Part shown: one piece after another, positions 5,641 to 63,262 of the stretch
Layout: each line of letters opens with the position of its first letter
Position numbering within the stretch: position 1 is the first letter of the stretch
Origin: Kineococcus sp. TRM81007
GTDB taxonomy: Bacteria; Actinomycetota; Actinomycetes; Actinomycetales; Kineococcaceae
Direction: 5' to 3'
Length of the DNA: 64,000 bases
Assembly: GCF_022669155.1 (NCBI RefSeq)
Contig: NZ_JALBVB010000034.1
Location: 27,890-91,889 of the forward strand
The notes under the pieces: generated by a model
Database searches by the model: none
Told to the model about the DNA's origin: nothing
What the model saw: only the letters and a program-made list of their open reading frames with translations
Made by a program: the position numbers and the translations under genes

Positions 5641-6599
5641 CGCAGGGTCCGGCCGGTGAGGTCGAGGAACACGTCCTCGAGGGTACGGCGAGCGGCCCCC
5701 AGGCCCTGGGGGAGCACGTCGTGGGTGGCGCACCAGGAGGAGACGGTGGCGGCGGTGCGCGGGTCGGCGGGCACGCCGGTGACGGCGTAGCGGCCCGGCT
5801 CGGTCTCGGTCACCACCGCCCCGGCGGGCAGGGCGGACGTCAGGGAGGCGGTGGGCAGCCCGGTGGGTGCGGTGAACGTCAGGGCGGCGGTGCCGCGGGT
5901 GAGGTCGGCGGGGGAGCCGGCGGCCACGACGCGCCCGTGGTCGACGACGACCACCTCGTCGGCCAACCGCTCGGCCTCCTCCATCAGGTGGGTGGTCAGC
6001 AGCACCGCGACGCCGGCGTCGCGCGCCTCGCGCACCACGTCCCAGACCGCCAGGCGCGCCTGCGGGTCGAGCCCGGCGCTGGGCTCGTCGAGGAAGAGCA
6101 GCTCCGGGCGCCCCACGAGGGCGCAGGCGAGGGCGAGGCGCTGGCGCTGGCCGCCGGACAGGCGCCGCACGCGGGTGCGGGCGAAGGACGTCAGCCCGAG
6201 GCGCTCGGCGAGCGGCCCCACGGGCAGCGGGTCGCTGTGCAGGCCGGCGACGTGGCGCAGCACCTCCAGCGCGCCGACTCCGGTGGGCAGGCCGCCGTCC
6301 TGCAGGACCACGCCGACGCGCGGGCGCAGGGAGGCGCCGTCGGTGGCGGGGTCCCGCCCGAGCACGCGCAGGGTGCCGGAGTCGACCCGGCGCAGCCCCT
6401 CGCAGCAGGCCACGGTGGTCGTCTTGCCGGCGCCGTTGGGGCCGAGCAGGGCGGTGACGCGCCCGCGGCGGGCGGTGAAGCTGAGCCCGTCCAGGACGGT
6501 GGTGCCGCCGTAGCTCTTGCGCAGCCCGTGCGCCTCGACCGCGGGGTCCGCGGCGTCGCCCGGCGCGGGGGCGGGGGGTAGGGGGGAGGCGGCGGCCAC
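5637..6599 (-). CDS. ABC exporter ATP-binding protein
   Basis: A 320-residue DrrA-like ATPase driving the adjacent ABC-2 permease. Walker A (GPNGAGKTT), the signature LSGGQRQRL, Walker B LLFLDEPSAGLD and the H-loop TTHLMEE are all intact. The C-terminal roughly 80 residues form the accessory domain common in this subfamily. The start is set at GTG 6599 (VAAASPLP), because a TAGACT hexamer lies 8 nt upstream with no ribosome site; longer in-frame extensions run into the sufR promoter region. It is divergent from sufR across about 110 nt. Confidence 0.88.
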   Translation of the reverse strand: MAAASPLPPAPAPGDAADPAVEAHGLRKSYGGTTVLDGLSFTARRGRVTALLGPNGAGKTTTVACCEGLRRVDSGTLRVLGRDPATDGASLRPRVGVVLQDGGLPTGVGALEVLRHVAGLHSDPLPVGPLAERLGLTSFARTRVRRLSGGQRQRLALACALVGRPELLFLDEPSAGLDPQARLAVWDVVREARDAGVAVLLTTHLMEEAERLADEVVVVDHGRVVAAGSPADLTRGTAALTFTAPTGLPTASLTSALPAGAVVTETEPGRYAVTGVPADPRTAATVSSWCATHDVLPQGLGAARRTLEDVFLDLTGRTLR

Positions 6600-47283: not shown

Positions 47284-47289
47284 TAGTGT
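47284..47289 (+). promoter_or_regulatory. -10 element upstream of the uppP mini-ORF
   Basis: TAGTGT, 6 nt before GTG 47296, where a 31-codon upstream ORF begins. Confidence 0.5.
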
Positions 47290-47295
47290 CCGACC

Positions 47296-47391
47296 GTGCT
47301 CACAGCCCCTCCCGACCTGACCGCCCCCTGCCCGCCGGAACGGCCCCTCGCACCCGGCACCGGCCGGCGGCCCGCGGGAGCCGCCGCGTGA
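47296..47391 (+). CDS. Possible leaderless upstream ORF coupled to uppP
   Basis: A 31-codon frame ([12 protein letters not shown] at the start) begins 6 nt after TAGTGT. It ends in a TGA that overlaps the GTG of uppP as GTGA. The layout matches the one before the site-2 protease. The peptide is Pro/Arg-rich with no known family, so its translation rather than its product may matter, by coupling expression of the main gene. Confidence 0.4.
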
Positions 47392-48236
47392 GCATGGGTC
47401 TGGGCGAGGGGGTCCTCCTCGGCCTGGTGCAGGGCCTGACGGAGTTCCTGCCGATCTCCTCCAGCGCCCACCTGGCCATCGCCGGCACCCTCATCGGGGC
47501 CGACGACCCCGGCGCGGCGTTCACCGCCATCAGCCAGCTGGGCACCGAGGCGGCGGTGGTCCTGTACTTCCGCCGCGACATCGCCCGCATCGTCAGCCGC
47601 TGGGCGCTGTCGCTAGCCGGGCGGGTGCCGCGCTCGGACCCGGACGCGCGCATGGGCTGGCTGGTCATCCTCGGCTCGATCCCCATCGGCGTGCTGGGCC
47701 TGGCCTTCAAGGACCAGATCGAGACGGTGCTGCGCGGCTTCGTCCTGATCGGCACCACCCTGTGGGTGTTCGCGCTGCTGCTGGGTGCCGCGGACCGCTT
47801 CGGCCGCAAGGAACGCACCCTGGACCGCCTCACCTGGAAGCACGGCCTGCTGTTCGGCCTGGCGCAGGCCCTGGCGCTGGTCCCCGGCGTCTCGCGCTCG
47901 GGCGGCACCATCACGATGGGCCTGCTGCTGGGCTACACCCGTGAGGCGGCGGCCCGGTACTCCTTCCTGCTGGCCATCCCCGCCGTGGTGGCCTCCGGCT
48001 TCTTCCAGCTCTACGACGAGCTCAGCGCGGGGGCGAGCGTGTCCTGGGGCCCCACGGCGGTCGCCACCGTCGTCGCGTTCGTCGTCGGCTACGCCGTCAT
48101 CGCCTGGCTGATGCGCTTCATCACCACGCACAGCTACACCGTGTTCGTCGTGTACCGCATCGTGCTGGCCGTGCTCGTGTACGCCCTGGTCGTCGCCGGT
48201 GTCCTGCCCGCCTGGAACGACGCCGCCGTCGGCTGA
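47388..48236 (+). CDS. uppP: Undecaprenyl-diphosphatase UppP (BacA)
   Basis: Dephosphorylates undecaprenyl diphosphate to recycle the lipid carrier for cell-wall synthesis; it also gives bacitracin tolerance. The protein has about 282 residues and eight helices. The catalytic segments are [20 protein letters not shown] and [20 protein letters not shown]. The GTG at 47388 (VSMGLGEG) overlaps the stop of the upstream mini-ORF; ATG 47394 is two codons later and equally likely. Convergent with corA. Confidence 0.94.
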
Positions 48237-60718: not shown

Positions 60719-60781
60719 TCACGCGAACACCGTCGCCGTCAGGGCCAGCGCCAGGGCCAGCGCCCGGTCGAGCACCGTCAC
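60719..60781 (-). CDS. Possible 20-residue hydrophobic peptide
   Basis: A 20-codon frame (VTVLDRALALALALTATVFA) begins with a GTG overlapping the stop of the RecB-like gene as GTGA and ends 63 nt later. It would form one short helix. The stop-start overlap is the only positive evidence. Confidence 0.3.
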   Translation of the reverse strand: MTVLDRALALALALTATVFA

Positions 60782-61710
60782 GCTCCGCGGGGCGGGTCCT
60801 GGGCGACGTCCCCGCCGGGCAGGGGCGGTGGGGTGCCGCCGAACGCCGGGCACAGCGCCTTGTGGTCGCACCACGAGCACAGCCTCCCCGGGGTGGCCGG
60901 CCACTCGCCGCTGGCGCGGTTGCGCTCGATGGCCTCCCACACGGCCCGCACCTCGCGCTCGGTGGCGCGCAGGTCGTCCTCGTCGGGGCAGTGGCCCAGC
61001 ACCTCGCCCGAACCGAGGTACACCAGCCGCAGCGAGCGCGGCACCACCCCGCGCAGCCGCCACAGCACCAGGGCGTAGAAGCGGATCTGGAACAGGGCGG
61101 CCGCGGCGAAGCGGTCGGACGGCGCCCGGCCCGTCTTGTAGTCGACGACCCGCAGCCGGCCGTCCGGGGCCACGTCCAGGCGGTCCACCACCCCGCGCAG
61201 CACCGGGCCGCCCTCCAGCGGCACCTCCACCCGCACCTCCCGCCCGGCCGGCTCCAGCCGGGTGGGGTCCTCCAGGTCGAAGTAGCGCCGCAGCAGCGAG
61301 CGCGCCTGCGCCAGCCAGCGCTGCAGCGCAGCGCGGCCGTCCTCGTCGTCGCCGAACAGCGCGCCCAGGCGCTCATCGCCGGCCAGCAGCTCCCGCCAGC
61401 GCTCCTCGACCATCCCGCACGCCGCCTCGGGGGTGCGCTCGGCGGCCGGCAGGTCGAAGAGCCGCTCCAGCACCGCGTGCACGAGGGTTCCGCGCGCCGC
61501 CGCCGGCGAAGGCGCCTCCTCCAGCCTGTCGATCGTGCGGAAGCGGTACAGCAGCGGGCACCGCAGGAAGTCCGCCGCCCGGGACGGCGACAGACCCCGC
61601 GCGCGACCCGCAGCCGTCCCCGCAGCCGTGCCGGGCGGGGGACCGCCGTCGGCCACGGGCTCGCCGGGCCGCTCGGGGGAGCCGGGCACGTCGGTGGTGG
61701 TGCTGGACAC
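60778..61710 (-). CDS. RecB-family exonuclease (PD-(D/E)XK, Fe-S type)
   Basis: A 310-residue nuclease-only protein similar to actinobacterial RecB-like exonucleases (Rv2119-type), without helicase motifs. A single Cys (FLRCPLLY, Cys51) and a C-terminal CSWCDHKALCPAF cluster are placed like the AddB/Cas4-type Fe-S cluster ligands. The catalytic segments LRGVVDRLDVAPDGRLRVV and VDYKTGRAPSDRFAAAALFQ are intact. Role likely in DNA repair or end processing. GTG start (MSSTTTDVPG) 6 nt after TAGCCT. Confidence 0.88.
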   Translation of the reverse strand: MSSTTTDVPGSPERPGEPVADGGPPPGTAAGTAAGRARGLSPSRAADFLRCPLLYRFRTIDRLEEAPSPAAARGTLVHAVLERLFDLPAAERTPEAACGMVEERWRELLAGDERLGALFGDDEDGRAALQRWLAQARSLLRRYFDLEDPTRLEPAGREVRVEVPLEGGPVLRGVVDRLDVAPDGRLRVVDYKTGRAPSDRFAAAALFQIRFYALVLWRLRGVVPRSLRLVYLGSGEVLGHCPDEDDLRATEREVRAVWEAIERNRASGEWPATPGRLCSWCDHKALCPAFGGTPPPLPGGDVAQDPPRGA

Positions 61711-61716
61711 GCCGGC

Positions 61717-61722
61717 AGGCTA
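61717..61722 (-). promoter_or_regulatory. -10 element of the RecB-like gene
   Basis: TAGCCT on the minus strand, 6 nt before GTG 61710. Confidence 0.5.
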
Positions 61723-61792: not shown

Positions 61793-61865
61793 GGGCCGGG
61801 GCGCGGCGGGGCGGGGCACGGCGGGGCGCGGCGGGGCGGGGCGGGGCACGGCGGGGCGGGGCGGA
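61793..61865. repeat. G-rich imperfect repeat upstream of the site-2 protease
   Basis: About 70 nt built from GGGGCGGGGCACGGC-like units with many runs of four G. It ends about 20 nt before the -10 at 61884, so it covers the -35 region. G-quadruplex potential on the plus strand. Confidence 0.7.
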
Positions 61866-61883: not shown

Positions 61884-61889
61884 TAGGAT
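61884..61889 (+). promoter_or_regulatory. -10 element upstream of the site-2 protease mini-ORF
   Basis: TAGGAT, 6 nt before GTG 61896. Confidence 0.5.
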
Positions 61890-61895
61890 CGGCGG

Positions 61896-61943
61896 GTGCG
61901 CAGCCCCCGAGTCACCGACCGCCCCGCCGGCGAGGCCCGGTGA
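61896..61943 (+). CDS. Possible leaderless upstream ORF coupled to the site-2 protease
   Basis: A 15-codon frame (VRSPRVTDRPAGEAR) starts 6 nt after the -10 hexamer. Its TGA overlaps the GTG of the protease gene as GTGA. This matches the layout before uppP. The protease itself has no good ribosome site, so ribosomes may reach it only by finishing this mini-ORF. Confidence 0.45.
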   Translation: MRSPRVTDRPAGEAR

Positions 61944-63082
61944 ACGGCGCCGGCATCCGCCTGGGGCGCCCCTTCGGCGTCCCGCTGCTGCTCGCGCCCT
62001 CGTGGTTCCTCTTCGCCGCCGTCATCGTGTGGGTCTTCGCCCCCGTGGTCTCGGTGCGGGTGCCCGGCCCGGCGTCCTACCTGGTGGCCTTCTCCTACGC
62101 GGTGCTGCTGCTGCTGTCCGTGCTCGTGCACGAGGTCGCCCACGCCCTGGCCGCCCGCTGGTCGGGCCTGCGCGTGTCCGGCATCGTCCTGAACGTCTGG
62201 GGCGGGCACACCACCTTCCAGGACGGCGACGTCGGCCCGGGCCGCAGCCTGCTCATCGCCGTGGTCGGGCCGGTCGCCAACGGCGCGCTCGCGCTGGCCG
62301 CCCACCAGGCCGGGGAGGTGGTGCGCGCCCAGCCCGGCCCGGTCGGGGTCGGTGAGCTGCTGCTGGGCGCCCTGACCGTCTCCAACGTGCTGCTGGCCGC
62401 CTTCAACCTGCTGCCGGGCCTGCCCCTGGACGGCGGTCACGCCCTGGAGGCGGTGGTGTGGAAGGTGCGCGGCGACCGCCTGGCCGGCACCGTCGCCGCC
62501 GCCTGGGCCGGCAGGGTGCTCGCCGCGCTCACCCTGGTGGCCGCCGTCGCCGTGCCCCGCCTGCTGGGGTGGCAGGCGACGCTGACGCAGGTGGTGTGGG
62601 CCGGGCTCGTCAGCGCCCTGCTGTGGCAGGGCGCCTCCCAGGCGCTGCAGTTCGCCGCCCAGCGTCGCCGGGTGCCGCTGCTGTCCGCGCGCGCCCTGCA
62701 GCGCCCGGCCATCGCCGTCAGCTCCCGCGCCACCGTCGAGGAGGTGGTGCGCGCGGCCCGCGCCGCCATCGACGCCGGCGCCACCGCCGGCAGCACCCGC
62801 GACCTGGAGGTCGTGCTCGTCACCGACGACGGCGTGCCGGTGGCCGTCGTGGACACCGCCGCCCTGAGCCGGGTGCCGCTGGAGCGGCGCGGCGCGCTCG
62901 GCGCCGGGGCCACCGCCCGCGCGCTGCCGCCCCGCTGCTGGCTGCCGGGCGACCTGACCGGCGAGGCGCTGCTGGACGCGGTCGCCGCCCGCCCCGGCGA
63001 GCACGTCGTCCTCGGCGCCGGCGGGCGCGTGGAGGGCCTGCTGCACACCGGCGACGTCGTCGCCGCCGTCACCGCGCGCTGA
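61940..63082 (+). CDS. Site-2 protease family metalloprotease with CBS-like C-terminus
   Basis: A 380-residue intramembrane zinc protease of the S2P/SpoIVFB class. The active-site HExxH is in VLVHEVAHALAARW, and the second metal motif is LLPGLPLDGGHALEAV. Six helices fill residues about 10-220. A C-terminal CBS-like domain (from ALQRPAIAVSSRATVEEVV) follows. Such proteases can cleave anti-sigma factors or pro-sigma factors inside the membrane; the anti-sigma gene at 31.9 kb is one possible target, unproven. GTG start overlaps the mini-ORF stop. Confidence 0.87.
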   Translation: MNGAGIRLGRPFGVPLLLAPSWFLFAAVIVWVFAPVVSVRVPGPASYLVAFSYAVLLLLSVLVHEVAHALAARWSGLRVSGIVLNVWGGHTTFQDGDVGPGRSLLIAVVGPVANGALALAAHQAGEVVRAQPGPVGVGELLLGALTVSNVLLAAFNLLPGLPLDGGHALEAVVWKVRGDRLAGTVAAAWAGRVLAALTLVAAVAVPRLLGWQATLTQVVWAGLVSALLWQGASQALQFAAQRRRVPLLSARALQRPAIAVSSRATVEEVVRAARAAIDAGATAGSTRDLEVVLVTDDGVPVAVVDTAALSRVPLERRGALGAGATARALPPRCWLPGDLTGEALLDAVAARPGEHVVLGAGGRVEGLLHTGDVVAAVTAR

Positions 63083-63101
63083 ACCGCGCGCCCCACCACC
63101 C

Positions 63102-63262
63102 GCACGAGCACCCCCGCACGAGCACCCCCGCACGAGCACCCCCGCACGAGCACCCCCGCACGAGCACCCCCGCACGAGCACCCCCGCACGACCACCCCCG
63201 CACGACCACCCCGCACGACCACCCCCGCACGACCACCCCGCACGACCACCCCGCACGAGCAC
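63102..63262. repeat. Tandem repeat array, 13-14-nt unit, about 12 copies
   Basis: Six near-perfect GCACGAGCACCCCC units, then about six variants with GACC in place of GAGC and some 13-nt copies. It fills most of the 204-nt gap between the site-2 protease and trmI. There are no spacers, so it is not a CRISPR array. Confidence 0.92.

What the first reader, a model, noticed from the sequence alone, without database searches (positions are those of the whole stretch)
61884..61990. Leaderless 15-codon upstream ORF overlapping the site-2 protease start
The -10 TAGGAT is 6 nt before GTG 61896. That GTG opens a 15-codon ORF whose TGA (61941-61943) overlaps the protease GTG (61940-61942) as GTGA. The protease has no Shine-Dalgarno sequence, so its translation may depend on termination-reinitiation after the mini-ORF. 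This would be an unusual way to control an intramembrane protease. The geometry is seen directly; the mechanism is inference.
Basis: partly seen in the sequence, partly recalled or inferred. Interest (0 to 1): 0.6.

Follow-up and report, generated by a model that had tools for sequence, protein, structure and literature searches.

The report
Leaderless mini-ORF delivering ribosomes to protease
In a bacterium of the genus Kineococcus, the mRNA for a membrane-embedded protease appears to begin directly with a tiny 15-codon reading frame whose stop codon overlaps the protease's start codon; relatives keep this arrangement while the tiny peptide changes, so its likely job is to bring ribosomes to the protease start, a mechanism of a kind already described in mycobacteria.

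Summary
The geometry is exact: TAGGAT 61884-61889, six bases, GTG 61896, 15 codons, TGA 61941-61943 overlapping the protease GTG 61940 as GTGA. The genome is a Kineococcus. In 7 of the 9 genus genomes with the gene (this one included), a TA[GC]GAT-N6-ATG/GTG mini-ORF of 12-25 codons ends in the same GTGA; peptides vary. These seven form one clade. The other two, a sister-genus species and 46 of 64 order-level homologues have the leaderless start in frame with the protease. So an ancestrally leaderless gene was probably converted once into leaderless mini-ORF plus coupled restart, and at least four later length changes all kept the frame. The window holds a second case at uppP, conserved in all 11 species checked; in a trigger-factor leader with a real Shine-Dalgarno, frame and start codon drift. 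'No Shine-Dalgarno' is not right: GAGG lies 4 nt before the protease GTG (-6.5 kcal/mol, near the genome median), though two relatives lack any. Best explanation: leaderless initiation, then termination-reinitiation at GTGA. This is the 'coupled leaderless small ORF' class of Shell et al. 2015: a new, conserved member, not a new kind. Regulation of the protease is not shown.

The parts
61884..61889 (+). -10 element TAGGAT (TANNNT), no -35 recognisable
   Evidence: Sequence; TA[GC]GAT with a 6-nt spacer kept in all seven mini-ORF species; TANNNT at spacing 6-7 is this genome's leaderless signature
61896..61943 (+). Leaderless mini-ORF, 15 codons plus TGA; GTG 61896 is the predicted 5' end of the mRNA
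   Evidence: start, frame and GTGA conserved in seven species with 12-25 codons and variable peptide
61932..61935 (+). GAGG, weak Shine-Dalgarno-like motif 4 nt before the protease GTG
   Evidence: -6.5 kcal/mol; spacer used in this genome; GGAG at the same spacer in four relatives, none in two
61940..61943 (+). GTGA, overlap of mini-ORF stop and protease start
   Evidence: identical overlap in seven species
61940..63082 (+). Site-2 protease family (M50) membrane metalloprotease, 380 aa, HEVAH and LDGGH motifs
   Evidence: PF02163 above the gathering score; motifs in the translation; start supported by codon usage

Best explanation
RNA polymerase starts at or within a base of 61896, so the mRNA begins with GUG. 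A ribosome binds the bare 5' end, translates 15 codons and terminates at UGA 61941. Without leaving the mRNA it shifts back one base and restarts on the overlapping GUG at 61940, probably helped by the weak GAGG just upstream, and makes the protease. The peptide itself is probably disposable; what is kept is the leaderless start, the frame and the GTGA. The arrangement arose once within Kineococcus, when the leader changed frame relative to an ancestrally leaderless, in-frame protease start. Shown here: geometry, conservation, phylogenetic polarity, frame retention, variable peptide. Inferred: the transcription start, translation of the mini-ORF, reinitiation, and the absence of a peptide function.
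For: Exact geometry. Same -10, 6-nt spacer, start codon and GTGA in 7 of 9 genus genomes with 12, 12, 13, 13, 15, 17 and 25 codons and different peptides. The seven are one clade (97/93) nested among species with an in-frame leaderless start; 46 of 64 order-level homologues are in-frame leaderless. At least 4 length changes all kept the frame. A parallel case at uppP kept start, frame and RTGA in 11 species. In the trigger-factor control with a real SD, frame and start drift. Genome-wide leaderless signature at exactly this spacing. Published precedents: RTG at the 5' end is necessary and sufficient for leaderless initiation in M. smegmatis, and RTGA-coupled leaderless small ORFs occur (PMC4633059); reinitiation at an AUGA overlap shown for ppe2 (PMC11260477).
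Against: No transcription-start or ribosome data for this genome. A weak SD in this species and four relatives could allow direct initiation. The seven species share one origin, so conservation is partly inheritance. The absence of stops in the mini-ORF is uninformative at this GC content. The frame-retention null (one third per change) is simple.
Confidence: 0.75

Rival explanations
1. The protease is initiated directly on its own GUG by free 30S subunits using the GAGG/GGAG at a 4-nt spacer. The mini-ORF is a relic of the ancestral in-frame leaderless start and does not matter for expression.
For: GAGG at 61932-61935, -6.5 kcal/mol, at a spacer used by 3.7% of starts in this genome; GGAG in four relatives.
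Against: Two relatives keep the GTGA mini-ORF without any SD-like motif. Frame and start codon are retained here and at uppP but drift in the SD-led trigger-factor leader. The protease start is predicted to be largely paired in the folded leader.
Confidence: 0.15
2. The mini-ORF is a regulatory attenuator or encodes a functional peptide that senses a condition and adjusts protease synthesis.
For: A translated leader ORF is a common regulatory device (established knowledge); regulation by a small ORF was shown for other mycobacterial uORFs (PMC11260477).
Against: Peptide sequence and length vary between species, with no shared codon run across the clade. The C-terminal similarity among four relatives (VGGVS/VGGAS) coincides with the GGAG motif.
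Confidence: 0.05
3. Ribosomes shift frame in the overlap, so that a leaderless mini-ORF-protease fusion is the main product, keeping the ancestral N-terminal extension.
For: The protease frame is -1 relative to the mini-ORF and the sister species make an in-frame extension; a minor frameshifted fusion was seen at the ppe2 AUGA overlap (PMC11260477).
Against: I see no slippery heptamer at the overlap in this sequence, the mini-ORF sequences are not conserved, and published coupling at such overlaps is mainly reinitiation (PMC11260477).
Confidence: 0.04
4. Chance arrangement with no meaning: a GC-rich leader that happens to hold an open frame.
For: Open frames are cheap at this GC content, and 298 of 732 modelled genes start with RTGA.
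Against: Conservation in seven species with exact spacing and frame; spacing-specific excess; drift in the control leader.
Confidence: 0.01

Closest known systems
'Coupled' leaderless small ORFs of mycobacteria (Shell et al. 2015, PMC4633059)
   Same: Leaderless RTG start, small ORF under 50 codons, RTGA overlap with the downstream gene, linkage kept while the peptide diverges.
   Different: Different genus and gene. Here the comparison shows an ancestral in-frame leaderless state and a single conversion, which I did not find described in the sections of that paper I read. No TSS or ribosome data here.
uPPE2-ppe2 AUGA overlap in M. tuberculosis (PMC11260477)
   Same: Out-of-frame uORF with a 4-nt stop/start overlap; the downstream gene depends on it, mostly by termination-reinitiation.
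   Different: uPPE2 has its own SD in a riboswitch leader; the Kineococcus mini-ORF is predicted leaderless and has no leader for a riboswitch.
Termination-reinitiation at overlapping gene pairs (PMC6728339)
   Same: Stop/start overlap, often with an SD-like motif inside the upstream frame.
   Different: Those are full gene pairs in operons; here the upstream frame is a 12-25-codon leader.
Leaderless genes with TANNNT in Actinobacteria (PMC3160421)
   Same: Same promoter signature and spacing; this is also the ancestral state of the protease gene.
   Different: There the leaderless start belongs to the gene itself, not to a mini-ORF.

Membership tests
Coupled leaderless small ORF (Shell et al. 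2015) | RTG codon at the mRNA 5' end | tested here: inconclusive
   Promoter geometry matches the genome's leaderless signature and is conserved; the transcription start itself was not mapped.
Coupled leaderless small ORF (Shell et al. 2015) | Stop TGA overlaps the downstream RTG as RTGA | tested here: met
   GTGA at 61940-61943 and in six relatives.
Coupled leaderless small ORF (Shell et al. 2015) | ORF of 5-50 codons | tested here: met
   15 codons here, 12-25 in relatives.
Coupled leaderless small ORF (Shell et al. 2015) | Linkage conserved more than the peptide sequence (reported for some members) | tested here: met
Coupled leaderless small ORF (Shell et al. 2015) | Ribosome occupancy of the small ORF | not testable with these tools
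   No ribosome profiling for this genome.
Termination-reinitiation | Downstream translation depends on upstream translation and on the overlap | not testable with these tools
   Needs reporter mutants.
Peptide-dependent attenuator uORF | Conserved peptide or codon run | tested here: not met
   Peptides vary in sequence and length.
Site-2 protease family (M50) | M50 profile, HExxH and C-terminal DG motif | tested here: met
   PF02163, 56.7 bits against a cut-off of 27.2; HEVAH and LDGGH.

The most novel reading that the evidence does not exclude
Leaderless mini-ORFs serve Kineococcus as a peptide-independent adapter under selection for frame alone: a leaderless 5' end loads a ribosome and hands it to a start codon downstream, so that two membrane proteins (the site-2 protease and UppP) are translated by leaderless-type ribosomes and thereby respond together to conditions that favour leaderless over Shine-Dalgarno-led initiation.
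Probability: 0.12. Interest if true: 0.75.

Novelty: new member of a known kind. Interest (0 to 1): 0.5.

Why it matters
Whether the many leaderless small ORFs of actinobacteria make useful peptides or merely deliver ribosomes is open. This locus is a natural experiment: close relatives share the promoter and the gene, some with the start directly in frame and some through a mini-ORF with a kept frame and a free peptide sequence. That makes the ribosome-delivery idea directly testable. It also suggests how a frame change in a leaderless gene can be rescued by a GTGA, and it fixes the likely N-terminus of the protease in these species.

Tried and rejected
An upstream in-frame start of the protease (GTG 61724 or 61742, in an open 72-codon extension) was rejected: codon usage places the start at 61940 and no protease-frame start lies between the predicted transcription start and 61940. 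The absence of stop codons was tested as evidence for the mini-ORF and found uninformative at this GC content. The generic sigma-70 scan found nothing; the genome's own leaderless genes also show no conserved -35. A candidate at 5672 (minus strand) was rejected as an ordinary operon overlap. The trigger-factor candidate was rejected as a conserved case and kept as a negative control. Two order-level hits that looked coupled (L035, L036) have upstream frames open for 172 and 45 codons and were not counted. NCBIfam gave no family for the protease. The named-genome scan returned only three loci. No structure prediction was run, as the question is about the leader.

Full report
Observation. The sequence is exactly as described: TAGGAT 61884-61889, six bases, GTG 61896, 15 codons (VRSPRVTDRPAGEAR), TGA 61941-61943 sharing GTGA with GTG 61940 of a 380-residue M50 membrane metalloprotease. 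The window lies in a 4.2-Mb genome. The protease lies between a divergent PD-(D/E)XK nuclease gene and a TrmI-type tRNA methyltransferase gene.

Is it more than chance? I modelled 732 genes in 864 kb of this genome; the model puts the protease start at 61940 without being told. TANNNT followed by an in-frame ATG/GTG peaks at spacings 6 (61 cases) and 7 (49), against about two at most other spacings. About 15% of genes therefore carry the leaderless signature, in line with the actinobacterial average in PMC3160421. Those promoters show no conserved -35, so the lack of one here is expected. Mini-ORFs that end in the RTGA of a gene start and are not operon overlaps number 3 at spacing 6, against 10 spread over the other 40 spacings from 0 to 40.

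Comparative test. In 7 of the 9 genus genomes with the gene (this one included), TA[GC]GAT-N6-ATG/GTG opens a mini-ORF of 12, 12, 13, 13, 15, 17 or 25 codons that ends exactly at GTGA on the protease start; peptides differ. In K. rubinsiae, K. siccus and K. xinjiangensis a TANNNT-N6 promoter stands before a start codon in frame with the protease, and 46 of 64 homologues across the order are leaderless in the same way with a 6- or 7-base spacer. The protein tree makes the seven mini-ORF species one clade (97/93), with the in-frame species outside. A directly leaderless protease is thus the likely ancestral state, and the mini-ORF arose once by a frame change in the leader. K. siccus has an in-frame GTGACC at the same distance from the conserved core as the GTGA of this genome, which suggests (inference) that a small indel could have created the arrangement.

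Constraint. Five different lengths on that tree need at least four length changes, all in steps of three bases (about 0.012 under a one-in-three null). The uppP mini-ORF of the same window (47296-47391) adds four more (joint 1.5e-4). It is present in all ten genus genomes with the gene (20-35 codons, RTGA in all) and in K. xinjiangensis with an 8-base spacer. The trigger-factor gene, found by the same scan, is a control: it has a clear AGGAG, and in nine species its leader length falls in all three frames and the leaderless start codon is lost in three. Indels in Kineococcus leaders are therefore not always multiples of three. Codon 2 of the protease starts with A in all seven; six of them use AGG, which is 3.8% of Arg codons here. 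Limits: these species share ancestry, A is common after start codons anyway, absence of stops is uninformative, and the null is simple.

Shine-Dalgarno. GAGG at 61932-61935 gives -6.5 kcal/mol, near the median of non-leaderless genes, at a spacer this genome uses. Four relatives have GGAG at the same spacer; two have nothing. The predicted fold of the 5' region pairs much of the protease start. So restart is probably helped by a weak internal SD, as reported for many overlapping pairs (PMC6728339), and direct initiation remains the main rival.

Mechanism. From the literature: in M. [quoted passage not shown]). Dependence of a downstream gene on a uORF through an AUGA overlap, mostly by termination-reinitiation, was shown for ppe2 (PMC11260477). 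A 2025 review states the idea that a short ORF may serve only to deliver a ribosome (PMC12548453). The present locus fits that scheme. Shown here: geometry, conservation, polarity, frame retention, variable peptide. Inferred: transcription start, translation of the mini-ORF, reinitiation, lack of peptide function. Nothing shows regulation of the protease.

Novelty. The class is known; the member is new as far as the held library goes: searches for Kineococcus with leaderless, and for site-2 protease with leaderless, returned papers whose titles and abstracts do not concern this arrangement. The visible conversion series, with in-frame sister species on one side and frame-keeping mini-ORFs on the other, is the most useful part.

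Noticed in passing
window 47284-47391 (+), uppP gene 47388-48236: A second leaderless coupled mini-ORF: TAGTGT-N6-GTG 47296, 31 codons, GTGA overlap with uppP/bacA (PF02673). Conserved in all 10 genus genomes with the gene and in K. xinjiangensis, with 20-35 codons and a variable peptide apart from a VLT/VPT-like start.
   Followed up: partly
L108:6372-6455 (G000:C55:446372-446455): The trigger-factor gene has a conserved TANNNT promoter about 80 bases upstream, a conserved leader stretch (GCACGCCTGACCACGACCTCCGC) and an AGGAG site; its leaderless mini-ORF is not conserved. The conserved leader stretch itself is unexplained.
   Followed up: partly
window 61708-61722 (-): The divergent PD-(D/E)XK nuclease gene (60778-61710) also looks leaderless: TAGCCT, 6 bases, GTG on the minus strand.
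   Followed up: no
window 63095-63262: About 14-base tandem units (CACGAGCACCCCCG and variants) fill the gap between the protease and the TrmI-type gene.
   Followed up: no
window 61795-61865: G-rich tandem repeats (GGCGGGGCGGGGCAC-like) lie just upstream of the -10 element; the relatives' upstream regions shown do not have them.
   Followed up: no
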